Assembly: GCA_024399835.1 (NCBI GenBank)
Contig: JAKSNK010000007.1
Location: 21,540-85,539 of the forward strand
Length of the DNA: 64,000 nt
Reading direction: 5' to 3'
DNA from: Paludibacteraceae bacterium
Lineage (GTDB): Bacteria > Bacteroidota > Bacteroidia > Bacteroidales > Paludibacteraceae
Part shown: positions 7,557 through 64,000 of the stretch, piece by piece
Position numbering within the stretch: position 1 is the first letter of the stretch
Layout: each line of letters begins with the position of its first letter
The notes under the pieces: generated by a model
Databases searched by the model: none
Told to the model about the DNA's origin: nothing
Seen by the model: the letters and a program-made list of their open reading frames with translations, nothing else
Translations under genes and position numbers: made by a program

Positions 7557-7644
7557 GGGTCTTTGCCGACGGCGGACCGACGGCGAACCGATAGATTATA
7601 GGGTCTTTGCCGACGGTCGACCGACGGTCGAATTATAGATTAAG
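7557..7644 (+). repeat. Tandem pair of GC-rich mini-repeats (GACGG family)
   Basis: Two head-to-tail copies of a 43-44 bp unit lie between the barrel gene and cca. Each begins with GGTCTTTGCCGACGG, contains two imperfect 10-11 bp units (CCGACGGCGA type in copy 1, CCGACGGTCGA type in copy 2) and ends near ATAGATTA. Copy 2 is identical over about 35 nt to a copy near 60738. The same unit is also inserted within ileS (43702-43741) and near 60602-60643. Confidence 0.85.
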
Positions 7645-28021: not shown

Positions 28022-28396
28022 TATTTTATTGGTTAATCGGTTAATAATTTGACTATTCGCCCTTTGGGCTACTATAGTTCATCGTAGGCAGAGATGCTCC
28101 CCGCATCTCTTATCGTCAACCTTTTTAGGAGCATAGTCAACCTTTTTAGGAAACAAGTCAAAAATATACGATTATTAAGAAACGATTCCCATAAACGAGT
28201 AAACCTAAAACCGTACAAAGCACATGCCTATGTTATTGATTTTCAATGTCGCTATCGAACGGTTAACGAACGGTCAAGCAACGGTCAGTATAGGATGAGC
28301 GAATGGTGGTGCACAAAAAACGCCATTTTTTATCTCATATTTCTTAGCCACAAGGGCACGATTATTTCAAAATTCTTAATTCAAAATTTTATAAAA
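28022..28396. other. Intergenic region with hairpins and short repeats
   Basis: Between divergent feoB and SH3-protein genes. It holds a GCCC-TTT-GGGC hairpin near 28060, a perfect 8-bp hairpin AGAGATGC/GCATCTCT at 28090-28110, a 16-bp direct repeat GTCAACCTTTTTAGGA at 28115 and 28136, and degenerate GAACGGT units at 28255-28310. A reading frame of 109 codons at 28094 looks spurious. Confidence 0.6.
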
Positions 28397-41360: not shown

Positions 41361-44300
41361 ATGAACGATATGAAATGTTTTAACGAGTACAAACAATTGG
41401 ATTTGCCGGGAATGAGCAAGGATATCCTGGCACAATGGGAACAGGAACATTTGCCTGAAAGGGCTATTGGAGAACGCCAAGACGCCAAAGGCAAATTTAT
41501 ATTTTTTGAGGGTCCTCCTTCGGCAAACGGTATGCCGGGTATTCACCATGTATTAGCTCGTACCATCAAGGATACTTTTTGCCGGTTCAAATCGATGCAG
41601 GGATACGAAGTGCGTCGTAAGGCAGGATGGGATACGCACGGTCTGCCTGTAGAATTGGGCGTGGAGAAAATGCTGGGAATTACCAAGGAGGATATTGGTA
41701 AAAAAATCTCTGTGGACGAGTACAATGCCGCTTGCCGTCGCGAGGTGATGAAATATACCAAGGAATGGACTGCCCTCACCAAGCAAATGGGCTATTGGGT
41801 GGATTTGGAAAACCCGTACATCACTTACGATAACAAGTATATTGAAACGCTGTGGTATTTGCTCAAGGAACTTTACAAAAAGGGGTATCTTTACAAGGGT
41901 TATACCATTCAGCCCTATTCGCCGGCAGCAGGTACGGGACTTTCTTCGCATGAGTTGAACCAGCCCGGTTGCTATCGTGATGTCAAGGATACTACTTGTA
42001 CCGCACAGTTCCGTATTAGGGAGTCCAGTATTATCGTGACGAAATCTGAGAATCTTCCTCTTTATGCCTTGGCATGGACAACTACTCCTTGGACTTTGCC
42101 CAGCAATACTGCCCTTTGTGTCGGTCCGAAGATTGATTATGTCGTTGTTAAGGGCGAAAACCCCTATACGCACGAGAAAGCATTCTACCTCTTGGCAGAG
42201 GCACGCTTGAGCGCGTATGCCAAGGAACTTTATCCTGTCGATGCCGACGGCAATCAGCTCCAACCAGAGATTCTCTATCGTTGCAAGGGCGCTGAGTTGG
42301 AAGGGATGGAGTATGACCAGCTCATTCCGTTTGCACAACCTATGCGTGGGGAAAACGACGGCACGCCGTTCCGCATTATTTTAGGCGACTATGTTACCAC
42401 GGACGACGGTACGGGTATTGTGCATATTGCCCCCACTTTTGGTGCGGACGATGCCTTTGTGGCTAAGAAAGCCGGCATCCCCGGTATGGTTTTCCTTTCC
42501 AAGAAAGGGGAGCGCCGTCCCATGGTGGACATGACGGGTAAGTTCTTCCTTATAGACGATTTGGACGAGGAGTTTGTGGCAAAGTATATCAATCGCAGTT
42601 TGTACGAGCAGTGGCAGGGACAGTGGGTTAAGAATGCCTACGACCCTCAATTTACCGTTGACGGCAAATACGATGAAGCCGCTGCACAAAAAGCGGAGAA
42701 TATAGATGTTCGCTTGTGTATCATGCTCAAGCAGGACGGACGCGCTTTCCGTATTGAGAAACATGTGCATACATACCCGCATTGCTGGCGAACCGACAAA
42801 CCTGTCCTCTATTATCCGTTGGATAGTTGGTTTATTCGTTCCACCAAGGCGCGTGAGGATATGATTCGGCTGAACAATACCATTCATTGGCAGCCCGAAT
42901 CGACCGGCTCGGGGCGTTTCGGCAAATGGCTCGAAAACCTCAACGATTGGAACTTGTCCCGCTCGCGTTACTGGGGTACTCCGTTGCCTATTTGGCGCAC
43001 GGAAGACGGACAGGAGGAAATCTGTATTGGGTCTATCAAGGAGTTGTTTGAGGAAATAGACAAATCTGTCGCAGCGGGCTTTATGACGGCTAATCCTTGG
43101 TCAAAACACAAGGTGGGTGACTATAGTAAAGCCAATTATGACCCGTCTGTCATCGACCTGCATCGCCCCTATGTGGACAGCATTATTCTCGTCAGTCCAT
43201 CGGGAAAACCCATGAAGCGCGAACTGGATTTGATTGATGTGTGGTTTGACTCGGGAGCGATGCCGTATGCGCAGGCGCACTTGCCTTTCGAGAATTTGGA
43301 TGCGCCTCGTACTGCCGACTTTATTTCCGAGGGTGTGGATCAGACGCGTGGCTGGTTCTTTACCCTGCATGCTATTCACACGATGTTGGAGGGAACGGTT
43401 GCTTACAAGAATGTCATTTCCAACGGTCTTGTTCTTGATAAGAACGGAAATAAGATGTCCAAGCGTTTGGGTAATGCCGTTGACCCCTTTGGCGCGTTGG
43501 AGAAATATGGTGCCGATGCGGTACGCTGGTATATGCTCACCAACTCGTCTCCGTGGGAGAATCTTAAGTTTGACCCGGAGGGTGTGGACGAGATTCGCCG
43601 TAAGTTCTTTGGCACACTTTATAACACATACGGCTTCTTTGCGCTTTATGCCAATGTGGACGGCTGGCAGCCGACTATGTTAGAAGGGGTGTTAGAAGGG
43701 GTTTTGCCGACGGTCGACCGACGGTCGACCGACGGTCGAATATCCCGTTACACTGCCGATAACGACCTGTCATGCGCATTGACGGAAATAGATAAATGGA
43801 TACTTTCCAAACTCAATTCGCTCATTCGCGAAGTGACAGAATACTACGAGGCATACGAACCTACCAAGGCAGGTCGGGCTATATCCAATTTTGTGCAGGA
43901 CGACCTCAGTAACTGGTATGTCCGCCTTAACCGTAAGCGTTTCTGGGGAGGAACGATGGATGCCGACAAGCGTGCTGCTTATGCTACGCTCTATACTGTG
44001 CTCAAGACGATTGCACAACTCATGGCACCCAACGCACCTTTCTATGCCGATCGTCTCTATCGCGACTTGACCGGTTCTACCGTGCATGAGAGCGAATGGC
44101 CTGTTGCCGATACAATGTGTATCAACAAGGAGTTGGAGCGGCAAATGGCATTGGCTCAGCAAGCCACTTCGATGATTCTTTCGCTCCGCAAGCGTGCTGA
44201 AAAGAATGTCCGCCAACCTCTGCAAAAAGCCGTTGTTCCGGCACCGGATATGGAGACGGCAGAAGCCATTAAACATGTGGAGAACCTTATCAAATCAGAG

Positions 44301-44864
44301 GTGAATATCAAGGAACTCATTATCACTACTGCAGATAAGAGCGAAATCAAACTCGTCAAGAAAATCAAACCCCAATTCAAAGTCCTCGGCAAGAAAGTCG
44401 GAGGACAAATGAAAGCCATCGCTGCGGCTATCGGACAGATGTCACAGGCGGATATTGCCCGATTTGAGCAAGACGGCACTTTCCAGGTGGAGGGGTATGA
44501 TTTGGTTGCCGAGGATGTAGAGATTCTTACCGAAGATATGCCGGGTTGGTTGGTCGCTACCGAGGGTATTCTGACTATTGCTCTCGACATTGAACTGACA
44601 ACCGAACTGATTGAAGAGGGTTTGGCACGAGAATTGATTAACCGCATTCAAAACATGCGTAAATCCGGTGGTTTGGAGATTGTGGACAGAATCCATGTGC
44701 AAATTCAAAAACTGCCTGAGTTGGAAGGAGTAGTCGCACATTTCGGCGAATATATTGCTTCGCAAGTGTTGGCAAAACAAATTTGCTTGGTGGACAATGT
44801 TGCCGATGCTACTCAAGTTGAAATAGATGCGTTGGTTGTTAATATCAGTATAAAGAAAGCATAG
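41361..44864 (+). CDS. ileS: Isoleucyl-tRNA synthetase, eukaryote-like type, with repeat-derived insert
   Basis: 1167 aa. The HIGH-type motif is GMPGIHH (about 57-63), the KMSKS loop is KMSKR (698-702); the editing domain has TTTPWTLPSNTAL and DDGTGIVHIAPTFG. There is no C-terminal zinc finger and the C-terminal region (LIEEGLARELINRIQNMRKSGGLE) fits the eukaryote-like class often tolerant of mupirocin. Between the catalytic core and the anticodon-binding domain, at about residues 774-796, lies MLEGVLEGV followed by LPTVDRRSTDGRIS, which is encoded by the dispersed GC-rich repeat family (43702-43741) preceded by a 12-bp duplication. The frame is kept. First gene of a four-gene run. Confidence 0.96.
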   Translation: MNDMKCFNEYKQLDLPGMSKDILAQWEQEHLPERAIGERQDAKGKFIFFEGPPSANGMPGIHHVLARTIKDTFCRFKSMQGYEVRRKAGWDTHGLPVELGVEKMLGITKEDIGKKISVDEYNAACRREVMKYTKEWTALTKQMGYWVDLENPYITYDNKYIETLWYLLKELYKKGYLYKGYTIQPYSPAAGTGLSSHELNQPGCYRDVKDTTCTAQFRIRESSIIVTKSENLPLYALAWTTTPWTLPSNTALCVGPKIDYVVVKGENPYTHEKAFYLLAEARLSAYAKELYPVDADGNQLQPEILYRCKGAELEGMEYDQLIPFAQPMRGENDGTPFRIILGDYVTTDDGTGIVHIAPTFGADDAFVAKKAGIPGMVFLSKKGERRPMVDMTGKFFLIDDLDEEFVAKYINRSLYEQWQGQWVKNAYDPQFTVDGKYDEAAAQKAENIDVRLCIMLKQDGRAFRIEKHVHTYPHCWRTDKPVLYYPLDSWFIRSTKAREDMIRLNNTIHWQPESTGSGRFGKWLENLNDWNLSRSRYWGTPLPIWRTEDGQEEICIGSIKELFEEIDKSVAAGFMTANPWSKHKVGDYSKANYDPSVIDLHRPYVDSIILVSPSGKPMKRELDLIDVWFDSGAMPYAQAHLPFENLDAPRTADFISEGVDQTRGWFFTLHAIHTMLEGTVAYKNVISNGLVLDKNGNKMSKRLGNAVDPFGALEKYGADAVRWYMLTNSSPWENLKFDPEGVDEIRRKFFGTLYNTYGFFALYANVDGWQPTMLEGVLEGVLPTVDRRSTDGRISRYTADNDLSCALTEIDKWILSKLNSLIREVTEYYEAYEPTKAGRAISNFVQDDLSNWYVRLNRKRFWGGTMDADKRAAYATLYTVLKTIAQLMAPNAPFYADRLYRDLTGSTVHESEWPVADTMCINKELERQMALAQQATSMILSLRKRAEKNVRQPLQKAVVPAPDMETAEAIKHVENLIKSEVNIKELIITTADKSEIKLVKKIKPQFKVLGKKVGGQMKAIAAAIGQMSQADIARFEQDGTFQVEGYDLVAEDVEILTEDMPGWLVATEGILTIALDIELTTELIEEGLARELINRIQNMRKSGGLEIVDRIHVQIQKLPELEGVVAHFGEYIASQVLAKQICLVDNVADATQVEIDALVVNISIKKA
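43680..43741. repeat. GC-rich mini-repeat inserted in frame within ileS
   Basis: TTAGAAGGGGTG occurs twice in tandem (43680-43703, second copy ending in TT), then TTTTGCCGACGG and three CGACGGTCGA-type units up to 43741. The same sequence family is found at 7557-7644, 60602-60643 and 60736-60770. Confidence 0.85.
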
Positions 44865-54444: not shown

Positions 54445-54470
54445 TCTTTTGCGAAAAAATTTGCTCACTT

Positions 54471-54594
54471 CCCCCGATTCACCGATTCACCAACTCGCCG
54501 GTTCACCGATTAAACTCTGTTCGTACCACCCAACTCTCTCCAACCCCTCATCGTTTGTGCGAGCTTATTATTTATTGTTTATTATTTATTATTT
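54471..54594. repeat. Repeat block A, copy 1
   Basis: Begins CCCCCGATTCACC..., contains CTCTGTTCGTACCACC and TGTGCGAGCTTATTATT, ends in an ATTATTTATT tract. Other copies: 54819-54934, 59283-59413, 59421-59547. Confidence 0.85.
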
Positions 54595-54620
54595 CCCGCC
54601 TCCCCCCCCCCCTCGTTTCC

Positions 54621-54721
54621 CCTTTGTTATGTCCTTTTTCAGGCGATTTTATCGCCGTTGCTCTAGTTTCCTAGTATAGCGCCAGCGACCTAGTTCCCTA
54701 GTCGCTTTGTGCTCTTTGTCC
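54621..54721. repeat. Repeat block B, copy 1
   Basis: CCTTTGTTATGTCC, then a GGCGAT-TTT-ATCGCC hairpin, then CTAGTATAGCGCCAGCGACC. Other copies at 57589 and 59558. A run of 10 or more C precedes it at about 54602-54612. Confidence 0.85.
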
Positions 54722-54810
54722 TTTTTGTGGTGCCTATTTAGGTACTCTTTCGACACCGACGATGTATCGTCTTTTTGTCGAAAAGAGACCGATATAGGCA
54801 CTTGTGATTC
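54712..54810. repeat. Long-hairpin element D, copy 1
   Basis: Framed by CTTTGTCCTTTTTGTG and CTTGTGATT. Within it GTGCCTAT (54730-54737) pairs with ATAGGCAC (54794-54801), CTCTTTCGACA pairs with TGTCGAAAAGAG, and GACGAT pairs with ATCGTC at the tip. Members with different stems but the same framing ends are at 54955-55077 and 59945-60062. Confidence 0.8.
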
Positions 54811-54818
54811 AAAGACTT

Positions 54819-54934
54819 CCCCCGATTCACCAACTCACCGATTCACCGATTAAACTCTGTTCGTACCACCCAACTCTCTCCAACCCCTCAGCGTTAGTGC
54901 GAGCTTATTATTTATTGTTTATTATTTATTATTT
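54819..54934. repeat. Repeat block A, copy 2
   Basis: Nearly identical to 54471-54594 from GATTAAACTCTGTTCG onward; differs in the number and order of the GATTCACC/AACTCACC units. Confidence 0.85.
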
Positions 54935-54954
54935 GTCTCCACCCCACCTCCCTT

Positions 54955-55077
54955 TGTCCCCTTTGTCCTTTTGTGTCGTCTTGTTTGGGGTTGTTTTACC
55001 GCCTCGCGACGGGTCGCGTTTTGCGGTAAAAACTACCCGACAAGACATTGTGATTTTAAAATTGTGCGCTTGTGATT
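54955..55077. repeat. Long-hairpin element D, copy 2
   Basis: CTTTGTCCTTTTGTG at the start and CTTGTGATT at the end, with TTTTACCGC (54994-55002) pairing perfectly with GCGGTAAAA (55023-55031) and CGCGAC-GG-GTCGCG at the tip. About 90% like 59945-60062. Confidence 0.85.
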
Positions 55078-55150
55078 GAAAGAAAAAACCACAAAAAACC
55101 TTCCGATTTGCCATGTTTCTGCAAAAAAAACGCATTTTTTTTACAAAATA

Positions 55151-55182
55151 TTTGGTCATATCAAATTTTTGTTGTACCTTTG
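55151..55182 (+). promoter_or_regulatory. Bacteroidota-type promoter for tRNA-Glu and rpsT
   Basis: TTTG at 55151-55154, 20 nt, TACCTTTG at 55175-55182. The transcript would have a leader of about 270 nt before the tRNA. Confidence 0.82.
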
Positions 55183-55244
55183 CATGCTTTTTCCCACGGG
55201 AGAGCACATGATCTTTGATTTTAACATCAATCACTATCAATCAT

Positions 55245-55396
55245 CCCAATACACAACTTGTTGTGGCTCGGAGAGGAGTGAGAGATTAATATCAACCCAA
55301 CACACAACTTGTTGTGGATTGGAGAGGAGCAAGAGATCTTTAATTTAAGATTTAGCCCGAGGCGCAACTTGTTGTGACTCGGAGAGCGGAGGAGCA
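55245..55396 (+). repeat. Three leader repeats with CACAAC-TT-GTTGTG hairpins
   Basis: Three copies, spaced 50-57 nt, of a unit with ACAACTTGTTGTGG/A then CGGAGAGGAG-type purines. Each can form the CACAAC-TT-GTTGTG stem (imperfect in copy 3). They lie between the promoter at 55151-55182 and tRNA-Glu. A frame from ATG 55208 to 55348 would encode 46 aa with two TTCCGxERSxR repeats; I do not call it a gene. Confidence 0.75.
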
Positions 55397-55459
55397 TATC
55401 GCTTGTTGATTAAGCGAAGCGGCAATCAACCGTTGCGATTATGCATCCGAACGCGACAA

Positions 55460-55531
55460 GGCGGGTTCGTATATCGGTTAGTACGTCAGATTTTCATTCT
55501 AAAAAGAGGAGTTCGACTCTCCTACCCGCTA
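55460..55531 (+). tRNA. tRNA-Glu (anticodon TTC) with a mismatch in the anticodon stem
   Basis: Acceptor GGCGGGT/ACCCGCT (G1-T72 at the end), D stem GTA/TAC, anticodon loop TTTTCAT (anticodon TTC), T arm AGGAG-TTCGACT-CTCCT, discriminator A at 55531, no CCA encoded. The anticodon stem TCAGA/TCTAA has a C28-A42 mismatch. It lies about 85 bp ahead of rpsT. Confidence 0.88.
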
Positions 55532-55616
55532 CTAAATACCGACCTTCCTCAAAAGGTAACACATTTGTTCAACACAACGATTGATTTCGTATCGTCGTTA
55601 AATCGCTAAGTAAAAA

Positions 55617-55871
55617 ATGGCAAATCACAAATCATCTTTGAAGCGTATCCGCCAAACGGCAACGCGCAAAGCACACAATCATTACTATGCCAAGACGGCT
55701 CGCAACGCTGTGCGTGACCTTCGTGCCACCACTGCTAAAGCTGATGCTATGGCTATGATGCCTAAAGTGGCTTCTATGTTGGATAAACTCGCTAAGCGTC
55801 ACATTATCCATCGTAACAAAGCTGCTAACCTCAAATCAGGTTTGGCAATTTACATCAATAAGCTGGCTTAA
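55617..55871 (+). CDS. rpsT: 30S ribosomal protein S20
   Basis: 84-aa 16S rRNA-binding protein with the usual [13 protein letters not shown] start and [17 protein letters not shown] end; entirely helical and basic. Same transcript as tRNA-Glu and followed by a strong terminator. Confidence 0.97.
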
Positions 55872-55891
55872 TCAAACCTACTTATATGTGC

Positions 55892-55917
55892 AAGGGGCTG
55901 CCTAACGGTAGCCCCTT
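55892..55917 (+). terminator. Terminator hairpin after rpsT
   Basis: AAGGGGCTGCC-TAAC-GGTAGCCCCTT, 11-bp stem with one wobble pair. Only a short T-rich tail follows, so read-through is possible. Confidence 0.8.
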
Positions 55918-55958
55918 ATTAAATGATACTGTCAACTATCAACTATCAACTAACTAAT

Positions 55959-57464
55959 ATGTCACTACCTATCATGTCGGCTGACGAAGCCGCAAAAATG
56001 GTCTTCAATGGTGCTATCTGTGGTATGGGGGGCTTTACTCCTGCAGGCGCACCTAAAGATGTTCCTACTGCTATTGCCAAGATGGCAGAAGCCCTTCATG
56101 CAGAGGGCAAAGAGTTCAAAATCGGCATTTATACAGGTGCCTCTACAGGCGATTCGTGCGACGGTGCTTTGGCTCGCGCACATGCCATTCAGTTCCGCAC
56201 GCCCTATCAGGGCAATAAGGACCTGCGTACCGAACTCAACGCACAGGGTGCCCACTATTTCGATATGCACCTCAGCGAGTTGGCGCAGGATATCCGCTAT
56301 GGTTTTTTGCCGAAGCCGGATTTCGCTATTATTGAGGCGTGCGACATCGTGGAGAAGGGCGACAAGGTCGAGATTGTGCCTACGGCTGGCGTAGGTAATA
56401 TGCTCACTTTCTGCGAGTTGGCAGACCGTATTATTGTTGAGTGGAATGCTGCTATGCCTGCTACCATGCGTGGTATGCACGACTTGTACGAACCGGCTGA
56501 TCCTCCTCAACGCCGCGAGATTCCTGTCTATCATCCTTCCGACCGTATAGGTGCGGATTGCATTACCGTGCCGGCTTCGCGCCTGGCTGCCGTGGTGCAT
56601 ACCAACCGCCCCAACGAGGTGGGCAAGTTCACTCCGCTGGACGAAACGACTCAGCAAATCGGTAATAATGTCGCTAAGTTCCTTGAGGATGAGATGCACG
56701 CAGGACGCATACCTGCTTCTTTCCTGCCTATCCAGTCAGGTGTGGGCAATGTGGCTAATGCTGTGTTGGGCGCGCTGGGTGAGAATAAGAACATCCCTGC
56801 TTTTGAGATGTACACCGAGGTTATTCAGGACTCTGTGGTTGGACTGATGAAGGAGGGTCGTATCAAGTTTGCTTCCGGGTGTTCTTTGACTATTGGTGCG
56901 GATAAGTTGCAGGATATTATTGACCACATGGATTTCTTCAAGGATAAGATTGTTCTTCGTCCGCAGGAGATTTCTAATAATCCCGAGTTGGCACGCCGTA
57001 TGGGTTTGATTACTATCAATACGGCTCTTGAGGCGGATATTTTCGGTAATATCAATTCCACGCATGTCTGTGGTACTAAGATGATGAACGGTATAGGGGG
57101 TTCGGGTGATTTCACGCGTAATGCGTATATTTCCATTTATACTACGCCTTCTACGGCTAAGGGTGGCTGTATTTCGGCATTTGTGCCGATGGTTAGCCAT
57201 TTGGACCATAGTGAACATAGTGTTAAGATTATCATTACGGAGCATGGTATAGCCGATTTGCGGGGTAAGAGTCCTATCCAGCGTGCTCATGAGATTATTG
57301 AGCATTGTGTTGATCCGTCTTATCGTCCGTTGTTGAATGAATATTTGGAGATGTCGAAGACGGCGCACACGCCACATACATTGTCTTGTGCTTTGGCTAT
57401 GCACGAGGAGTTTCTCAAGTCTGGTGATATGCGTAATACCAACTGGGCGAACTACCGACGCTAA
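55959..57464 (+). CDS. Acetyl-CoA hydrolase/transferase family CoA transferase
   Basis: 501-aa class I CoA transferase (succinate/acetate or butyryl type). ICGMGGFTPAGAPKDVP near the N-terminus, VGNMLTFCELADRIIVEWN, catalytic Glu in FEMYTEVIQDSVVGL, the GIGGSGDF loop, and FVPMVSHLDH and VKIIITEHGIADLRGKSP. Links acetate or propionate formation to succinyl-CoA in many Bacteroidales. ATG 55959 is preferred; the 12-codon extension to 55923 is read from an ACTATCAACTATCAAC repeat. No promoter fits in the 41 bp after the rpsT terminator. Confidence 0.92.
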   Translation: MSLPIMSADEAAKMVFNGAICGMGGFTPAGAPKDVPTAIAKMAEALHAEGKEFKIGIYTGASTGDSCDGALARAHAIQFRTPYQGNKDLRTELNAQGAHYFDMHLSELAQDIRYGFLPKPDFAIIEACDIVEKGDKVEIVPTAGVGNMLTFCELADRIIVEWNAAMPATMRGMHDLYEPADPPQRREIPVYHPSDRIGADCITVPASRLAAVVHTNRPNEVGKFTPLDETTQQIGNNVAKFLEDEMHAGRIPASFLPIQSGVGNVANAVLGALGENKNIPAFEMYTEVIQDSVVGLMKEGRIKFASGCSLTIGADKLQDIIDHMDFFKDKIVLRPQEISNNPELARRMGLITINTALEADIFGNINSTHVCGTKMMNGIGGSGDFTRNAYISIYTTPSTAKGGCISAFVPMVSHLDHSEHSVKIIITEHGIADLRGKSPIQRAHEIIEHCVDPSYRPLLNEYLEMSKTAHTPHTLSCALAMHEEFLKSGDMRNTNWANYRR

Positions 57465-57545
57465 TTGTTTTTAGTCGTTTTCAATTGTTTTTAGTCGTTT
57501 TCAATTGTTTTCTGATTGTATTTCAATTGTTCTCCAATTGTATCA
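57463..57545. repeat. 20-bp tandem repeat overlapping the CoA transferase stop
   Basis: AATTGTTTTTAGTCGTTTTC at 57463-57482 and 57483-57502, then two decayed units beginning AATTGTTTTCTGATTG and AATTGTTCTCCAATTG. The first unit starts inside the stop codon. Confidence 0.85.
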
Positions 57546-57548
57546 AGA

Positions 57549-57586
57549 AAAACCCTTCCCACTACCATGGAAAGGGTTTTCTTTTT
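57549..57586 (+). terminator. Terminator after the CoA transferase gene
   Basis: AAAACCCTT and AAGGGTTTT form a 9-bp stem around a loop with a further CC/GG pair, followed by CTTTTT. Confidence 0.8.
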
Positions 57587-57588
57587 CC

Positions 57589-57922
57589 CCTTTGTTATGT
57601 CCTTTTTCAGGCGATTTTATCGCCGTGTCCCTAGTTCCCTAGTATAGCGCCAGCGACCTAGTTCCCTAGTCTCTTTGTGCCTTTTTTTCCCCCCCCCCTC
57701 TTCACCGATTCTATTTAGATTTTCTTTTAGATTTTCATCAGATTTCTCGGAGCACCGCTCCGAATAAAACATAGATTTCGTCCCCATATTTTTGGCTGAG
57801 ATTTTCAATTGGATTTTAAAATCTTACTAAAAATCTTTGCTTAAAATCGGGTTGACGATACTTTTCTTTATTTCGCTTCGCTCAGAAATCAAAAAAAATC
57901 TTTATTGAAAAATCAGTTCCCC
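57589..57922. repeat. Repeat blocks B+C, copy 1 (334 bp)
   Basis: Block B (CCTTTGTTATGTCC...), a T7-C10 homopolymer pair at about 57682-57698, then block C with CGGAGC-ACC-GCTCCG hairpin and TTTTGGCTGAGATTTTC. Repeated almost exactly at 59558-59895 in the same orientation; the two copies flank the ATPase gene. No coding function seen. Confidence 0.88.
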
Positions 57923-57985
57923 CCCACCTCACCACCTCACCATTTCCCCATATATGCAATTTTTTTGCGTTTTTTTGCCAAAATA

Positions 57986-58017
57986 TTTGCTCAATTCAAT
58001 TTTTTATCGTACCTTTG
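57986..58017 (+). promoter_or_regulatory. Bacteroidota-type promoter for the ATPase gene
   Basis: TTTG at 57986-57989, 20 nt, TACCTTTG at 58010-58017; leader of about 65 nt. Confidence 0.82.
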
Positions 58018-58037
58018 CCATCTGATTAACAATATAT

Positions 58038-58073
58038 TTAGTATTTCCTAATAAAAATATTAGGTATATCTAA
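58038..58073 (+). promoter_or_regulatory. 36-bp dyad in the ATPase leader
   Basis: TTAG ... CCTAATA-AAAA-TATTAGG ... CTAA: a perfect 7-bp inner stem with outer TTAG/CTAA in register (12 of 16 arm positions match). Placed just downstream of the promoter, 16 nt before the ATG. Could be an operator or an mRNA hairpin over the start. Confidence 0.6.
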
Positions 58074-58089
58074 TAAAATTTATTTTCTT

Positions 58090-59268
58090 ATGCAAAGACC
58101 TGTCATTCAGCAGATTCGGGAGCGTATTAACGAGCCGAGACACTTTATTCAAGTGCTTTATGGACCACGGCAAGTGGGAAAAACAACCTTAATAACGCAA
58201 ATTTTGGAGCATTCTTCTATGCCTCATTTATTTGTAACGGCAGAGGAGCAGGTAGGGGTTGATAGGGTTTGGTTACGCGGTATATGGTCGCGGGCTCGTC
58301 AGATGCAACGGGAAGTTGCCTCGGATTTCCTGCTGGTGATAGATGAGGTGCAGAAGATTGCCAATTGGAGTGAAACGGTCAAGTTGGAATGGGATACGGA
58401 TACTTATCAACATCTGCCTATTAAGGTTGTTTTGTTGGGTTCTTCATCCATTTTGATTCAAAAAGGACTTTCTGAGTCATTAGCCGGCAGGTTTGAGACT
58501 ATCTATATCTCGCATTGGTCATACGCGGAGATGAAGGAGGCATTTGGTTGGTCGCTTAACCAATACCTGTGGTTTGGTGGCTATCCGGGTACGGGAGATT
58601 TGATTAAGGACGAGCAGCGGTGGCAGCATTATGTTACTCAGTCGTTGATAGACACTACGCTTACCAAGGATGTTCTTATGCTCACTCGTGTAGATAAACC
58701 TGCATTATTACGCAGGTTGTTTACGATAGGTTGTGCTTATTCTGCTCAGATAGTGGCGCTTAATAAGATTCAGGGTGAATTGCAAGAGCGGGGTAATTTG
58801 ACTACATTGAGCAATTATTTATCTTTGCTTTCGTCTGCCGGACTTTTATGTGGGTTGGAGAAGTATGCGGGGAATGTATTGCATCAGCGTGCGTCTAAGC
58901 CCAAGTTTCAAGTCTATAATAATGCGTTGATGAATGTCCAGCGTGCCATGAGTATTGATATTGCGGAGCAGGATCATGCCCTTTGGGGTAGAGTGGTAGA
59001 GTCGGCAGTTGGGGTGCATTTGTTGAATGCTTCTGTGATGGGGGGCTATCGTGTTTATTATTGGAATGAGAATTCCAAAGAAGTTGATTTTGTGTTGGTT
59101 CGTGGGGATAAGGTGGTTGCGTTAGAGGTTAAATCCGGTACAGATTCTATTAATAATGGTATGTCTGCATTTGATAAGTTGTATCATCCGCAAGCCATAT
59201 ATATTATAGGAACGGATGGCATTCCTCTTCAGGACTTTTTCCTTATGAATCCGTCCGACTTGTTTTAA
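58090..59268 (+). CDS. AAA-14/DUF4143 ATPase
   Basis: 392 aa. Walker A LYGPRQVGKTT (P-loop 25-32), Walker B FLLVIDE (80-86), sensor LLGSSSILIQKGLSESLAGRF, then a helical middle and a DUF4143 domain ending in a PD-(D/E)xK-like motif EVDFVLVRGDKVVALEVKSG (about 336-356). Such proteins are widespread, often in variable regions and in uneven copy number, and their role is not settled; some act in toxin-antitoxin or defence contexts. It has its own promoter and dyad, and sits alone between two 334-bp direct repeats. Confidence 0.92.
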   Translation: MQRPVIQQIRERINEPRHFIQVLYGPRQVGKTTLITQILEHSSMPHLFVTAEEQVGVDRVWLRGIWSRARQMQREVASDFLLVIDEVQKIANWSETVKLEWDTDTYQHLPIKVVLLGSSSILIQKGLSESLAGRFETIYISHWSYAEMKEAFGWSLNQYLWFGGYPGTGDLIKDEQRWQHYVTQSLIDTTLTKDVLMLTRVDKPALLRRLFTIGCAYSAQIVALNKIQGELQERGNLTTLSNYLSLLSSAGLLCGLEKYAGNVLHQRASKPKFQVYNNALMNVQRAMSIDIAEQDHALWGRVVESAVGVHLLNASVMGGYRVYYWNENSKEVDFVLVRGDKVVALEVKSGTDSINNGMSAFDKLYHPQAIYIIGTDGIPLQDFFLMNPSDLF

Positions 59269-59282
59269 TTATTCCCCTCTTC

Positions 59283-59413
59283 GCTTCACCGATTCACCAA
59301 CTCACCGATTCCCCGATTAACCACTATTCTCTCCTCTGTTCGTACCCCCCAACTCTCTCCAACCCCTCATCGTTAGTGCGAGCTTATTATTTATTATTTG
59401 TTATTTATTATTT
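59283..59413. repeat. Repeat block A, copy 3
   Basis: Same block as 54471-54594, with an extra ATTAACCACTATTCTCTC segment shared with copy 4. Confidence 0.85.
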
Positions 59414-59420
59414 AGTCAGT

Positions 59421-59547
59421 TCCCCGATTCACCAGTTCACCGATTCCCCGATTAACCACTATTCTCTCCTCTGTTCGTACCACAGAACTCTTATCTTTCC
59501 TCAGCGTTTGTGCGAGCTTATTATTTATTGTTTATTATTCATTATTT
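59421..59547. repeat. Repeat block A, copy 4
   Basis: Adjacent to copy 3; GATTAACCACTATTCTCTC then CTCTGTTCGTACCAC and TGTGCGAGCTTATTATT. Confidence 0.85.
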
Positions 59548-59557
59548 ATCCCCCCCT

Positions 59558-59895
59558 CCTTTGTTATGTCCTTTTTCAGGCGATTTTATCGCCGTTGTCT
59601 CTAGTTTCCTAGTATAGCGCCAGCGACCTAGTTCCCTAGTCTCTTTGTGCTCTTTTTTTCCCCCCCCCCCGCTTCACCGATTCTATTTAGATTTTCTTTT
59701 AGATTTTCATCAGATTTCTCGGAGCACCGCTCCGAATAAAACATAGATTTCGTCCCCATATTTTTGGCTGAGATTTTCAATTGGATTTTAAAATCTTACT
59801 AAAAATCCTTGCCTAAAATCGGGTTGACGATACTTTTCTTTATTTCGCTTCGCTCAGAAATCAAAAAAAAATCTTTATTGAAAAATCAGTTCCCC
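59558..59895. repeat. Repeat blocks B+C, copy 2 (338 bp)
   Basis: Direct copy of 57589-57922 with few differences; the homopolymer pair here is T7-C11 or longer (about 59653-59670). Confidence 0.88.
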
Positions 59896-59944
59896 TCTTC
59901 GCTTCACCGCTTCACCAACTCACCAGTTCACCATCCCTTGTATT

Positions 59945-60062
59945 CTTTGTCCTTTTGTAGTGTCTTTTTCGGGGTTGTTTTGCCGCCTCGCGACGGGTCG
60001 CGCTTTGCGGTAAAAACACCCGACAAGACATTGTGATTTAACAAATGTATCCGCTTGTGATT
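59945..60062. repeat. Long-hairpin element D, copy 3
   Basis: CTTTGTCCTTTTGT ... GCCGCCTCGCGACGGGTCGC ... GCGGTAAAAAC ... CTTGTGATT. Close relative of 54955-55077. Confidence 0.85.
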
Positions 60063-60084
60063 TACCGCTTCACCGCTTCCCCGC

Positions 60085-60235
60085 TTCACCCTTCCTTCGG
60101 TTTGCTCTTCCCCCTATGGGGGAAGTCGGATAGGGGCTTTTGGGGTCCCCGACACGCCTGCGTGGTGGGGAGAGGAGGAGCAACCGAGCGCTCTAATTTG
60201 CGTGCAAATTCATTTGAGCGAGGTTTGCTCCGACG
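60085..60235. other. Cluster of intergenic hairpins
   Basis: CTTCCCCC-TAT-GGGGGAAG near 60108, TCCCC...GGGGA enclosing CACG/CGTG near 60145-60171, AATTTGC-GT-GCAAATT near 60196-60211 set inside an imperfect GAGCAA/TTGCTC stem. No gene seen between 59269 and 60440. Confidence 0.6.
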
Positions 60236-60263
60236 AAAACATGCTTTATAACATAAAAAAAAA

Positions 60264-60295
60264 TTTGCACAAGTCATTAAAAAGCAGTACCTTTG
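60264..60295 (+). promoter_or_regulatory. Bacteroidota-type promoter for the surface protein
   Basis: TTTG at 60264-60267, 20 nt, TACCTTTG at 60288-60295; leader of about 140 nt to ATG 60441. Confidence 0.82.
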
Positions 60296-60440
60296 CAGTC
60301 TCAAACGAGAAAAACGCTCTTTTTGCACCCTTTTTTGGGGTGTTTGTTGATACGCTTTTTCTTGTTGGAGGTGCCTCGCGCATATATATGTTACTGCTGA
60401 AAGGAACAAAAAATCAACTAATTTAATAAAATTATACATT

Positions 60441-63400
60441 ATGAAACACACTCAAAATTTACTGCAAATGATTGCGAAGACGATAGGGGGGGGTAGATTA
60501 ACCTCTTCGTACTCAATTGTCAAGCATTTTTCATCTTCACGGGCGGCTTCTTTGTATCAATTGTATCAAAGGGTCGCTTTTGTGTTGTTAGCTATTTTAC
60601 CGGGTTTTTGCCGACGGCGAGCCGACGGCGAACCGACGGCGAAAGCCGCCGTTAACGACCCGTTGACCATTTCTGGCAACCACCAATCCGCTTCGGTTCA
60701 CCGATTCACCGGTTCACCGGTTTACCGTTTTTCCGTGTCTTTGCCGACGGTCGACCGACGGTCGAATTATACATTGAGCCACTCTTGTGCTCCTCAAACC
60801 GTCAATCTTTGTCTCCCCCTCCGAAGGGGGACTAAGGGGGTCTTTCACCGCAACCTTAACCGTGTCGCCACCCTCCTCTTCGTCCTCCTTCTCGGCATAG
60901 GCAATATGTGGGGAGAAACAGTAACAAAAATTGAATTTAAGAATTCGGGTAATTTAACGCAAGGATATACTTATGCTGCAACAGTATCGGATGACGCTAA
61001 TTTGTTAATGAATAGTGAAGCATATTATGGTTCTTCAAATGGCACTGGTCAAAATTCAGGAAATACATACATATATCGTTTAGCAGTTGCCTTTGAGTTG
61101 AAATCGGCTGCAACTATACAAATCGATTTGCCATTAGCTAGTAACAACAAAAACTATACATTTGTGACTTATTCAGGAACGGAGGCTTACAACACCCTGT
61201 TCAAAAATACGGCAAATGCCAATCCCGCTATCACTATCAATGCTTGTGCTGTATCATATAAAAATGAAACGAGTGGTATAAAAAAGACAATATATGATAC
61301 ATATGGTTCAAAAACATATAAAAACTTGCTTTTGTATGACGGTCCAGTATTAACTGTATTGGGAACTGTTTCTGGAACGGCTACAAAAAACCAACCGATA
61401 TCTGAAACATTAAAATATTCGTCCACTGCAACTGTTTTTCCAGCAGGTTACTATGCTCTGTATTTAGATTATGGAAGTTCAACAGGTCGTATAGGTTCTT
61501 TAACTTTAAAAGCTGTTGAAATTGGCTACACTGTTACCTATAATGCTAACGGCGCAACTTCGGGTGATGTTCCAACAGATGGTACAAAATATGAAAAGAA
61601 TGCCGATGTGACTGTACTTGGCAATACAGCTCAAAATCCGTTGGTAAAAACTGGTTATAATTTTGATGGTTGGAATACAAAAGCAGATGGTACTGGTACT
61701 GATTATTCCGCAGGTTCTACATTCAGCATTTCTGCCAACACCACCCTCTATGCTAAGTGGACTGAGGTACAATGTACATCTACAACATTGTCTATTGCAG
61801 CAGGATCTAATACCCTAAGTCGTACAGGTTCGTCTGTTACAACTACGATTACGCCAACTTTGGGTGACAATACAAGTTCAGTTGTTTATGGAGTGTATTC
61901 TGATAATGCTTGTACTTCCACCGCTTCGGGTGCTAGTATTAGTGGCACAACATTTACAGCTACGGAGGGTGGAACCTATTATGTTCGCGCTACGCAGGTG
62001 TTTGATGGTACCTATTGCGCCACAACCTCTAATGTGGTAGAAATCACAGTTACAGTTCCGGTTTCCAGCATTTCCCTAAATAAAACTTCCACTTCTATTG
62101 CAGAAGGTAAATCCGAAACATTGACAGCTACTGTTAATCCAAGTGATGCCACTAACAAAAATGTCACTTGGTCTTCTAATGCTGAAAGCGTCGCTACTGT
62201 AGATGCTAATGGTAAAGTTACTGGTGTTGGTGTAGGTACAGCCACAATTACCGTCAAATCTGTAGCGGACGAGTCAAAAACCGCCACTTGTACCGTGACT
62301 GTCATCGAGGGAGTTTTTACAGACAATATAGTTTGGAAAACAGGTAGCGGCTATACTGGTTGTGTAGAAAACCCTGGTTCTGCAACAACTTCGACAAACT
62401 TCTCTACATCTACTATTACTGGCGCCAGTGGGATGGATCGCCCAACCAATGCAGGTGATACATGGCAAATAACTATCAATGCAAAAGAGGGATATGTAAT
62501 TCAAAGCATTTGTATTTACGGTAAGGCAGAAAGTACAGGTGGTGATACATATTACTACGGATGGGATAGTGATGTATCATCTACTACTACTGGTTATGGC
62601 GAAGGTAAGGTTACATATGAAGCCCCCGCTAATGGTGCACAGAAATTCACATTTAAATATACGGCAAACTATGCAGCGTCAGAAAAGAAGGGTGGTGTTT
62701 ATTGGCGTAATGCACTAGTCACTTTGAAAAAAGCTCCCAAAACTTTCACCGTCACTTTCGACACGCAAGGTGGTTCCACAGTTGGTTCTCTTACTGAACC
62801 TTCTGTAGGTGCAGGTATTATATTACCTGCTGCTCCTACCAAAAACGGCTACACCTTCAAGGGTTGGTATGCTGCTGCAACAGGTGGTGAACCCGTAGGC
62901 GCTGTCGGTAGTAACTACAAACCATCTTCCAACTGCACCCTCTACGCTCAGTGGACTGCCATTGTATATGATATTACTTATTATGCAGAGAAAGATTTCG
63001 CCTGCGAGAAAACTTTGGATTATTTAGAGCCAAAGAAATATACTATTGAAACCACTACTCCTTTCCCAACTACTGCTACTAAAACAGGATACACCTTTGA
63101 GAAATGGTGGAAATATAGTAATAGCGAATGGAAAGAAGCACCTGAAACCCCAAAAGGCTACTATGGCAACTTTAAATTATACGCTTCTTGGATTATCAAC
63201 ACCTACACCGTCTCTGCCTCTGTAGCACAAGCATCAGACGGTTGGGGTACTGTTAGCCCAGCACAAGTGGAGAATGTCGCTCACGAATCTTCTATCGCTG
63301 CTGATGGTAATCTGTTGAAGATAAACGGCGAAACCGCTATCACCGCTACTCCTACTGCTCAATCTCCACAATATGATTACGCTTTCAAAGAGTGGACAGG

Positions 63401-64000
63401 TATTCCTGCTGGTGGTCAAGTACTAGAGGCAACCACAGTCACCGCTTCCTTCACGCAAACCGCGCGCACGTACAATATTACATATAATAAGAACGATGGT
63501 GAATGGGTAGGTGATGAACCGTCCACGACCTACACCTATGGCGTAGGTGCTACTCTGCCTACTAGTGAGGACATCACTCGTGATGACGGCGCCACTTTCT
63601 TGGGTTGGTTTGATAATGAGAGTCTTGAAGGTACTGCTATTACTAAAATAGACGAAGACGCCACTGGCGATAAAGAATTCTATGCTAGTTGGACTGACAA
63701 AGCTACCTACACCATTACTTACGACATGAATGGTCACGGCACTGCTATTGATCCTACTACAGTCATAGAAGGCAACCAATGGACTGCCCCTGAAGATCCT
63801 ACCGAAACAGGTTACACCTTCGACGGTTGGAAACGCGCAGCAGAGACTGGTGATGAAACACTCTATAAACATGGTGATACTGGTTTCACTCCTGAATCTG
63901 ATGAAACCCTCACTGCCCAGTGGACTGCTGTGTCTTACACCATTACTTACACCAATACTTATGATGTAGAGCATAGCAATCCTGCTACATATACTATCGA
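60441..64000 (+). CDS. Large secreted surface protein with InlB B-repeats and a Big2 domain (3' end beyond window)
   Basis: Open from ATG 60441 to the right edge without a stop (1186 codons). Residues 1-140 are atypical and partly encoded by dispersed repeats (see 60486, 60602, 60736). A signal peptide then appears in VATLLFVLLLGIGNMWG (about 142-158), cleaved before ETVTKIEF. Next: an unknown beta domain (159-362), a first InlB/Listeria-Bacteroides repeat (363-440, YTVTYNANG ... LYAKW), a Big2 Ig-like domain (about 539-621, SISLNKTSTSIAEG), another beta domain (622-768), and five or more InlB repeats (from 769, 843, 921, 1011, 1088; a seventh begins near 1164). The family is a surface or adhesin-like type. 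The C-terminal sorting signal is outside the window. Confidence 0.85.
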   Translation, partial: MKHTQNLLQMIAKTIGGGRLTSSYSIVKHFSSSRAASLYQLYQRVAFVLLAILPGFCRRRADGEPTAKAAVNDPLTISGNHQSASVHRFTGSPVYRFSVSLPTVDRRSNYTLSHSCAPQTVNLCLPLRRGTKGVFHRNLNRVATLLFVLLLGIGNMWGETVTKIEFKNSGNLTQGYTYAATVSDDANLLMNSEAYYGSSNGTGQNSGNTYIYRLAVAFELKSAATIQIDLPLASNNKNYTFVTYSGTEAYNTLFKNTANANPAITINACAVSYKNETSGIKKTIYDTYGSKTYKNLLLYDGPVLTVLGTVSGTATKNQPISETLKYSSTATVFPAGYYALYLDYGSSTGRIGSLTLKAVEIGYTVTYNANGATSGDVPTDGTKYEKNADVTVLGNTAQNPLVKTGYNFDGWNTKADGTGTDYSAGSTFSISANTTLYAKWTEVQCTSTTLSIAAGSNTLSRTGSSVTTTITPTLGDNTSSVVYGVYSDNACTSTASGASISGTTFTATEGGTYYVRATQVFDGTYCATTSNVVEITVTVPVSSISLNKTSTSIAEGKSETLTATVNPSDATNKNVTWSSNAESVATVDANGKVTGVGVGTATITVKSVADESKTATCTVTVIEGVFTDNIVWKTGSGYTGCVENPGSATTSTNFSTSTITGASGMDRPTNAGDTWQITINAKEGYVIQSICIYGKAESTGGDTYYYGWDSDVSSTTTGYGEGKVTYEAPANGAQKFTFKYTANYAASEKKGGVYWRNALVTLKKAPKTFTVTFDTQGGSTVGSLTEPSVGAGIILPAAPTKNGYTFKGWYAAATGGEPVGAVGSNYKPSSNCTLYAQWTAIVYDITYYAEKDFACEKTLDYLEPKKYTIETTTPFPTTATKTGYTFEKWWKYSNSEWKEAPETPKGYYGNFKLYASWIINTYTVSASVAQASDGWGTVSPAQVENVAHESSIAADGNLLKINGETAITATPTAQSPQYDYAFKEWTGIPAGGQVLEATTVTASFTQTARTYNITYNKNDGEWVGDEPSTTYTYGVGATLPTSEDITRDDGATFLGWFDNESLEGTAITKIDEDATGDKEFYASWTDKATYTITYDMNGHGTAIDPTTVIEGNQWTAPEDPTETGYTFDGWKRAAETGDETLYKHGDTGFTPESDETLTAQWTAVSYTITYTNTYDVEHSNPATYTI
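60486..60493 (+). repeat. G8 homopolymer tract at codons 16-18 of the surface-protein gene
   Basis: Reads ATA, eight G, TAGATTA. With eight G the frame continues (GGG GGG GGT AGA); nine G gives TAG at once; seven G gives GTA GAT TAA. Candidate slippage switch. Confidence 0.7.
60602..60643. repeat. GC-rich mini-repeat, copy in the surface-protein gene (1)
   Basis: GGGTTTTTGCCGACGGCGAG then two more CCGACGGCGA units. Translated as CRRRADGEPTA. Confidence 0.85.
60736..60770. repeat. GC-rich mini-repeat, copy in the surface-protein gene (2)
   Basis: TGTCTTTGCCGACGG then TCGACCGACGGTCGAATTA; about 35 nt identical to 7603-7637. Translated as SLPTVDRRSNY, close to LPTVDRRS in the ileS insert, so the same reading phase is used in both genes. 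Confidence 0.88.

What the first reader, a model, noticed from the sequence alone, without database searches (positions are those of the whole stretch)
43680..43741. Dispersed GC-rich repeat inserted in frame in the essential ileS gene
IleRS contains LPTVDRRSTDGRIS encoded by three CGACGGTCGA-type units, just before the anticodon-binding domain and after a 12-bp tandem duplication. The same DNA lies between genes at 7557-7644 and in the surface-protein gene near 60602 and 60736. A mobile or amplifying mini-element that inserts in protein genes without breaking the frame recalls the Rickettsia palindromic elements, but this one is shorter and has a repeating 10-bp core. The insertion site is a probably exposed loop.
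Basis: partly seen in the sequence, partly recalled or inferred. Interest (0 to 1): 0.75.

Follow-up and report, generated by a model that had tools for sequence, protein, structure and literature searches.

The report
Eleven-base repeat copied into essential genes
A short GC-rich DNA motif of eleven bases, repeated two or three times, occurs at some 35 separate sites in this gut bacterium's genome, including in-frame spots inside essential genes such as ileS, and many related species fill the same loop of that protein with their own, different short repeats.

Summary
At 43698-43741 ileS carries GGGGTTTTG-(CCGACGGTCGA)x3-AT; the unit is 11 bp, not 10. TTTGCCGACGGTCGACCG has 39 matches (35 separate sites) in the genome, reversed control 0. 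Of 30 matches read, 10 lie in frame inside recognisable genes (valS, ileS, mnmA, obgE, ispG, trmO and others), in both orientations.

The IleRS site is a loop before the anticodon-binding domain. Of 69 genomes read, 40 have a tandem-periodic linker there (p<=0.01), mostly 11- or 7-bp units that differ between species. The closest relative has a sister subtype there. In valS the element overwrote a 31-bp stretch without changing length, one that in relatives resembles it.

Best reading: a Paludibacteraceae genus prone to 7- and 11-bp tandem duplications, in which some units spread, probably by homology-guided copying, and survive in tolerant frames. It works like Rickettsia palindromic elements but fails their defining features. 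No RAYT or RVT_1 was found. In eight relatives sampled the ileS unit recurred in one only.

The parts
43698..43741 (+). ileS copy: head GGGGTTTTG (43698-43706), three 11-bp units CCGACGGTCGA (43707-43739), tail AT (43740-43741)
43662..43784 (+). hypervariable linker of IleRS between ...FALYANVD and EIDKWILSKLN (123 nt here, 36-144 nt in 69 genomes read)
43678..43702 (+). 12-bp tandem duplication TGTTAGAAGGGG, in frame; the closest relative (JAKSNJ) shows no such duplication
41361..44864 (+). ileS, isoleucyl-tRNA synthetase, 1167 aa, frame intact
7557..7591 (+). intergenic copy of sister subtype: GGGTCTTTG + CCGACGGCGGA CCGACGGCGAA CCGA
7601..7633 (+). intergenic copy GGGTCTTTG-(CCGACGGTCGA)x2-AT; JAKSNJ has a copy at the orthologous place (that locus was fetched by exact match)
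60602..60643 (+). copy of sister subtype, CCGACGGCGAG + 2 x CCGACGGCGAA, in the 5' part or leader of the 60441 open frame
60735..60767 (+). copy GTGTCTTTG-(CCGACGGTCGA)x2-AT in the 5' part or leader of the 60441 open frame

Best explanation
The insert is one copy of a dispersed element, roughly GGG(T/G)(C/T)TTTG-(CCGACGGTCGA)2-3-AT, in a Paludibacteraceae genus whose DNA readily forms tandem duplications of 7 and 11 bp. Two processes are layered. First (pattern shown, cause inferred): slippage or template switching with a preferred step of about 11 or 7 bp makes short arrays at many places, usually with a different unit at each. Second (dispersal shown, mechanism inferred): in some lineages one such unit is copied to many other places, probably by homology-guided copying (annealing of a short single strand, or template switching, at stretches that already resemble it) and not by a transposase. 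In genes only copies survive that keep the frame and fall in tolerant loops or leave conserved residues intact; the unit helps because it contains no stop codon in any of six frames. The IleRS linker is a very tolerant loop and so shows a different repeat in many species. No benefit to the cell is needed.
For: 39 matches at 35 separate sites in the own genome, control 0; G009 has 31 matches at 19 sites. Ten of 30 matches read are in frame in genes with Pfam or IleRS assignments, 6 sense and 4 antisense. IleRS linker: 40 of 69 periodic at p<=0.01, periods 11 (18), 7 (8), 9 (6), 15 (3), 14 (2), 8 (2), 12 (1); 30 of 40 periods are not multiples of three, so the repeats arise as DNA. On a tree of 66 IleRS the 11-bp state (19 rows against 19 rows with other periods) needs 11 changes, at least 9 by well-supported branches. 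valS: same-length replacement in G000 only; 29 of 29 relatives read, plus JAKSNJ and JAKSNM, lack it; the stretch in 32 sequences of 31 relatives matches the element at 14-22 of 31 bases, median 19, while 51 of 2,245,988 background positions reach 19 and 4 reach 21. Shared places with changed units, in loci not chosen by the repeat: ileS of JAKSNJ has two CCGACGGCGAA units, ispG of JAKSNJ three CCGACAGTCGA units where the own genome has two CCGACGGTCGA. Exact 11-bp tandem duplications: 26 in 797 kb of 8 congeners against 11 of 10 bp, 3 of 12 bp and 1 of 13 bp; 0 of 11 bp in 312 kb of 20 same-order genomes. No Y1 transposase match.
Against: All 26 exact 11-bp arrays in the 8 congeners sampled (about 100 kb each) have different units, and the ileS unit recurred in 1 of 8 (G055). 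By whole-genome patterns the ileS unit recurs modestly: G040 6 sites, G005 5, G012 3, ileS included. In G009 the dispersed unit (CCGACGGTCGA) is not its ileS unit (CCGACGGATCT). Homology-guided replacement rests on one case, valS; mnmA, ispG and trmO look like true insertions. The valS likeness may be partly a survivor effect (only events that keep RFDCR would live), and the nearest relatives match less there (JAKSNJ 14, JAKSNM 15 of 31). On the tree the 7-bp state is clustered (0 of 500 shuffles as low), so it is partly inherited. All genomes are drafts; many are incomplete.
Confidence: 0.5

Rival explanations
1. A classical non-autonomous transposable mini-element (MITE, REP or RPE type) moved in trans by a host transposase and tolerated in frame.
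For: Dispersed copies with a shared head GGGTCTTTG and tail AT; in-frame insertions in mnmA, ispG and trmO; the three-unit form can fold (z -2.53).
Against: No Y1 transposase match in the 85%-complete genome (other transposase families were not searched); same-length replacement in valS; the two-unit form, 21 of 30 copies, folds no better than shuffles; terminal inverted repeats or target duplications were not apparent by eye in the 30 flanks printed, but were not tested systematically.
Confidence: 0.2
2. The IleRS arrays are purely local slippage products in a loop under no constraint, and likeness to other loci has no common mechanism.
For: Units differ between species and mostly did not recur in 100-kb samples; 26 arrays with 26 units; the adjacent 12-bp duplication is local.
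Against: In G000 the ileS copy shares unit, head and tail with many unlinked copies; the ileS unit recurs at other sites in G040, G005 and G012.
Confidence: 0.2
3. The repeats are binding sites of a fast-evolving DNA-binding protein, kept by selection at the DNA level; 11 bp would set one site per helical turn.
For: Period of 11 bp. Three orthologous copies are identical at 66 of 66 bases with 80% identical flanks, but those sister loci were fetched by an exact match to the repeat, so this identity was built in.
Against: In loci not chosen by the repeat, JAKSNJ has other units or copy numbers at ileS and ispG and none in valS; JAKSNM has none in ispG or valS; other genomes have many arrays with unrelated units.
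Confidence: 0.07
4. Repeat DNA is made by a telomerase-like reverse transcriptase (DRT10 kind) from a short RNA template and then anneals into the chromosome.
For: DRT10 makes short tandem-repeat cDNA, 9-nt in one system, with variable motif and length between systems (PMC12632851, abstract and passages); short units with preferred lengths here.
Against: No RVT_1 match in the own genome, 85% complete; many unrelated units in one genome would need many templates. RTs were not searched in the relatives.
Confidence: 0.03

Closest known systems
Rickettsia palindromic elements (RPE)
   Same: Small repeated DNA found between genes and in frame inside conserved housekeeping genes, tolerated by the protein.
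   Different: RPEs are about 105-150 bp, palindromic, with an open frame encoding a conserved peptide (PMC2229807 and PMC10969869, passages); here about 33-44 bp, tandem 11-mers, no fixed frame or orientation, and one length-neutral replacement.
REP / REPIN and CGTC-tagged REPs
   Same: 20-60 bp dispersed repeats, some inside genes; CGTC REPs occur in Bacteroidetes among others and apparently lack a dedicated transposase (PMC3116915 and PMC3733652, passages).
   Different: REPs have a stem-loop with an unpaired GTAG or CGTC tag; the two-unit form here folds no better than shuffles, and no Y1 transposase match was found.
Small dispersed repeats of Nostoc (Elhai et al. 2008)
   Same: About 20-bp repeats, tandem in various copy numbers, possibly mobile (described in one passage of PMC2884548; the original is not held).
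   Different: Details of the original are recalled only; whether it reports in-frame spread through essential genes could not be checked.
Heptamer direct repeats (TAACTGA) of Beggiatoaceae, Cyanobacteria and some Bacteroidetes; cyanobacterial STRRs
   Same: Short tandem units, dispersed in small sets, with a fixed period and no evident mechanism (PMC4679880, abstract and passages). STRRs are recalled.
   Different: One fixed heptamer, in the main genome mostly just upstream of start codons and stop-containing in one orientation; here units of 7-11 bp that change between species and also lie in frame within genes.

Membership tests
Rickettsia palindromic element | length about 105-150 bp with long palindromic stem | tested here: not met
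   element 33-44 bp; two-unit form folds like shuffles, three-unit form better than most (z -2.53)
Rickettsia palindromic element | encodes one conserved peptide in frame with host genes | tested here: not met
   ten genic copies: 6 sense, 4 antisense, peptides such as PTVDRRS, ADGRPTVE, CRQSTDGR, FDRRSTVG, IRPSVDRR
Rickettsia palindromic element | in frame inside conserved housekeeping genes | tested here: met
REP / REPIN | stem-loop with unpaired GTAG or CGTC tag, often inverted pairs | tested here: not met
   units head to tail in the 30 copies read; fold of the two-unit form z +0.18
REP / REPIN | RAYT (Y1) transposase in the genome | tested here: not met
   0 matches to PF01797 in own genome, 85.41% complete; found in 5 of 14 control genomes
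MITE | terminal inverted repeats and target-site duplication | tested here: inconclusive
   none apparent by eye in 30 printed flanks; no strain-level empty sites available
dispersed short tandem repeats (STRR / SDR kind) | short unit in a few tandem copies at many unlinked places | tested here: met
   21 of 30 loci with 2 units, 9 with 3; 39 matches at 35 sites
dispersed short tandem repeats (STRR / SDR kind) | sequence relatedness to cyanobacterial STRR or SDR | not tested
   no reference sequences were compared
DRT10 / telomerase-like repeat synthesis | reverse transcriptase gene | tested here: not met
   0 matches to PF00078 in own genome, 85.41% complete

The most novel reading that the evidence does not exclude
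A dispersed DNA element that spreads by overwriting chromosomal stretches that already resemble it (homology-guided, length-neutral conversion, as in valS), fed by a genus-wide duplication process with an 11-bp ruler; as units turn over between lineages, essential proteins such as IleRS and IspG rewrite one loop with whatever repeat the lineage currently makes.
Probability: 0.25. Interest if true: 0.85.

Novelty: new variant of a known kind. Interest (0 to 1): 0.68.

Why it matters
It shows a bacterial genus in which minisatellite-like DNA with an 11-bp (and 7-bp) period keeps entering loops of essential enzymes, so the amino-acid sequence of those loops reports the repeat DNA of the lineage and not protein selection. 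The 11-bp peak and the same-length overwriting in valS make a copying mechanism without transposase testable, which bears on how small dispersed repeats spread; [quoted passage not shown]

Tried and rejected
Reverse transcriptase origin: no RVT_1 match in own genome. RAYT origin: no PF01797 match. Phage vector: exact 23-mer absent from the viral contig collection. The idea that every species' ileS unit is its dominant dispersed unit mostly failed: in about 100 kb per genome the unit recurred in 1 of 8 (G055), not in G102, G107, G059, G050, G043, G007, G103; single matches to units of other species turned up in G107, G050 and G043, at 2 mismatches, the 7-bp unit of G102 matched other genomes as often as its own. 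G007 has two CCGACGGTCAA places elsewhere. Common ancestry of all 11-bp units: 14 units picked by hand beat 2000 of 2000 same-strand shuffles, but with one CCGACGG member kept 81 of 2000 shuffles reach the observed likeness. Homogenisation of orthologous copies: I first took 66 of 66 identical bases as evidence; the sister loci had been fetched by exact match, so it is withdrawn, the fourth pair L007/L072 had been left out, and less biased loci show changed units. For that reason I lowered the binding-site rival (0.12 to 0.07) and raised local slippage (0.15 to 0.20). Hairpin-driven spread: two-unit form folds like shuffles. In one search the identity columns printed were offset and are not used; one search replaces them (its 32 sequences hold G009 twice). 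Extraction failures: G019 ileS; 8 of 30 mnmA loci failed or gave spurious frames; three short rows dropped from the tree, and 28 of its 66 rows without a clear period are not counted in the changes; mnmA of JAKSNJ not recovered. One search read rows of a protein alignment into a DNA set by mistake; only its hits to loci are used. No structure was predicted. The held papers gave nothing for Paludibacteraceae with tandem repeats; other literature searches.

Full report
What was checked. The ileS array is three exact 11-bp units CCGACGGTCGA at 43707-43739 with head GGGGTTTTG and tail AT, after a 12-bp tandem duplication. The frame is intact. The intergenic copies at 7557-7633 are as described. 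The copies near 60602 and 60736 lie in the first codons of an open frame starting at 60441, ahead of a signal-peptide-like stretch, so they may be untranslated.

How many copies. In the own genome (1,759,035 bases, 46 contigs, 85.41% complete) TTTGCCGACGGTCGACCG has 39 matches with up to 2 mismatches (23 exact, 8 with one, 8 with two), 18 forward and 21 reverse; four lie within 150 bp of another, so there are 35 separate sites; the reversed control has 0. In 101 genomes searched with the two-unit 23-mer (up to 2 mismatches), 14 match, all among the 61 of the same genus; the own genome has 42 matches, G009 31 (19 sites), the others 1 to 5; none of the 40 same-order genomes matches. Exact 23-mer hits in named records are 20 stretches of three genomes, all titled Paludibacteraceae bacterium, from horse faeces and roe deer reticulum; one of these genomes gives the same IleRS match as G009 of the own genus. 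None lies in the viral contigs.

Anatomy. Thirty of the 39 matches were read as loci. The consensus is GGGTCTTTG, then 2 units (21 of 30) or 3 units (9 of 30), then AT, often TATACAT. The nine left out of that count are one with 1 mismatch and eight with 2. A sister subtype has CCGACGGCGAA or CCGACGGCGGA units. The unit gives no stop codon in any of six frames (seen from the sequence).

Genic copies. Ten of the 30 lie in frame in recognisable genes: valS, trmO, an N-acetylmuramoyl-alanine amidase, a family-9 glycosyltransferase, obgE, mnmA, ispG, a gene of the L-cysteine desulfidase kind and a RecD-like helicase, all nine with Pfam matches, and ileS. Six are sense and four antisense, and the peptides differ. 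Against solved TrmO (1xqb) the element is a 10-residue insertion. Against solved IleRS (8c8w) residues 774-806 of our protein fall between two aligned stretches that are five residues apart in that chain, before the anticodon-binding part.

The ileS loop across the genus. A 273-aa query found matches in 79 of 81 genomes, some to other synthetases only. I fetched 70 loci; 69 linkers were extracted, own included. Lengths run from 36 to 144 nt. Forty of 69 are tandem-periodic at p<=0.01 by 300 shuffles each (about 0.7 expected): 11 bp in 18, 7 in 8, 9 in 6, 15 in 3, 14 in 2, 8 in 2, 12 in 1; 29 are not at that level. Units differ: for example CCGACGGTCAA in G007, GAGTCGAAAAC in G040, ATCGGAAGCTC in G005, ACAATGG in G026, GAGATCAC in G055. 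On a tree of 66 IleRS sequences built without the linker, the 11-bp state (19 rows, against 19 rows with other periods; 28 rows uncounted) needs 11 changes, at least 9 forced by well-supported branches, and 96 of 500 shuffles need as few; the 7- and 14-bp state needs 5 and is clustered (0 of 500). The nearest relative, JAKSNJ (87% identical in this stretch), has GGGGTTTTG + 2 units of CCGACGGCGAA + AT at the same place.

Other loops. In obgE (31 of 31 loci read) the own genome and JAKSNJ carry CCGACGGTCGA, G115 has its own 11-mer ACGGCAACGAG, G056 a 6-mer array; most of the others show acidic, non-repeated linkers. In mnmA (22 of 30 read) the own genome has an insert in a loop where G053 has a 7-bp array and G041, G059 and G104 have an inverted repeat of the CCCCTCCCTTGAGGGG kind. 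In ispG (30 of 30 read) the same loop holds 7- or 8-bp arrays in G053, G017 and G058; JAKSNJ has three CCGACAGTCGA units there, and JAKSNM none.

valS. Here the own genome reads RFDCRSTVGKDL where 29 of 29 relatives read RF(D/E)CRK-type sequence of equal length; JAKSNJ and JAKSNM also lack the element. The own 31-mer is the reverse complement of an element with one variant base, head and tail included. The same stretch in 32 sequences from 31 relatives matches it at 14 to 22 of 31 bases, median 19; JAKSNJ has 14 and JAKSNM 15. In 2,245,988 background positions (both orientations) of congeneric DNA, 51 reach 19, 4 reach 21 and none has both the first 8 and last 6 bases exact. This is the best evidence for homology-guided overwriting. 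Caveats: it is one case; only events that keep RFDCR would survive; and the two nearest relatives match less well than the others.

Shared copies. Three orthologous copies (trmO with JAKSNM, obgE and the intergenic 7610 copy with JAKSNJ) are identical at 66 of 66 bases with near flanks 273 of 342 identical. This is not evidence of constraint or homogenisation, because the sister loci were fetched by an exact match to the repeat. Where the sister locus was found by its gene instead, the unit or copy number differs (ileS; ispG) or the element is absent (valS). Places are thus partly shared while the units turn over.

Genus-wide period. In 797 kb from 8 congeners (stretches away from ileS) exact two-copy tandem duplications number 136 of 7 bp, 43 of 8, 21 of 9, 11 of 10, 26 of 11, 3 of 12, 1 of 13 and 15 of 14; in 312 kb of 20 same-order genomes 26, 4, 3, 5, 0, 0, 0 and 0. 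Markov sequences give 0 of 11 bp. All 26 arrays of 11 bp have different units, 20 not wholly inside an open frame, so most arrays look locally made.

Dispersal elsewhere. By whole-genome patterns (up to 3 mismatches) the ileS unit recurs in G040 (12 matches, 6 sites with ileS), G012 (5 matches, 3 sites with ileS) and G005 (15 matches, 5 sites with ileS). In G009 the dispersed unit is not the one in its ileS. In eight other genomes sampled at about 100 kb the ileS unit was seen again in G055 only. The two-layer model follows: local duplication is general, wide dispersal of one unit is the state of some lineages, the own genome among them.

Mechanism. Shown: dispersal, in-frame tolerance, unit turnover at protein sites, one same-length replacement. 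Inferred: copying through annealing or template switching at partial matches. Transposition is weakened by the lack of a Y1 match and by valS; other transposase families were not searched. No reverse transcriptase of the RVT_1 family was found. The genome is 85% complete, so absence is not proof.

Comparison with the known. RPE facts are from passages of PMC2229807 and PMC10969869, REP facts from passages of PMC3116915 and PMC3733652, heptamer repeats from the abstract and passages of PMC4679880, small dispersed repeats from a passage of PMC2884548, DRT10 from the abstract and passages of PMC12632851. The original Nostoc paper is not held. It works like RPEs in its effect on proteins but fails their defining features. 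I file it as a new variant of dispersed short tandem repeats.

Noticed in passing
window 54465-60734: An 8-bp tandem family (TTCACCGA / CCGATTCA, CGGTTCAC) recurs at 14 registered positions, near TTATTATTTA 7-bp runs.
   Followed up: partly
window 28256-28287: A diverged 11-bp array CGAACGGTCAA, a possible decayed member of the same family.
   Followed up: no
window 60441-63998: The long open frame has about 140 codons ahead of a signal-peptide-like stretch; the repeats there are stop-free and may stretch the frame artificially.
   Followed up: partly
window 57670-57898 and 59642-59870: A 229-nt direct duplication, 96% identical, 1972 bp apart.
   Followed up: no
window 19634, 20432, 28382, 29630, 55136, 60249: Six copies of a TTTGCG...TTGTACCTTTGCAGT-like stretch that resembles the Bacteroidetes promoter (resemblance recalled).
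   Followed up: no
L029:765-2384: The RecD-like helicase carries, besides the element, a low-complexity NQQGNQQ stretch; in G009 (L063) the same gap is only a few codons long.
   Followed up: partly
L325-L329 (G107, 100 kb): Ten exact 11-bp arrays in one 100-kb sample, the densest of the eight sampled.
   Followed up: no
L208, L209, L220 (mnmA) and L099, L132 (ileS): GC-rich inverted repeats of the CCCCTCCCT...AGGGAGGGG kind also sit in frame in the mnmA loop, and similar ones in the IleRS loop, of some species.
   Followed up: no
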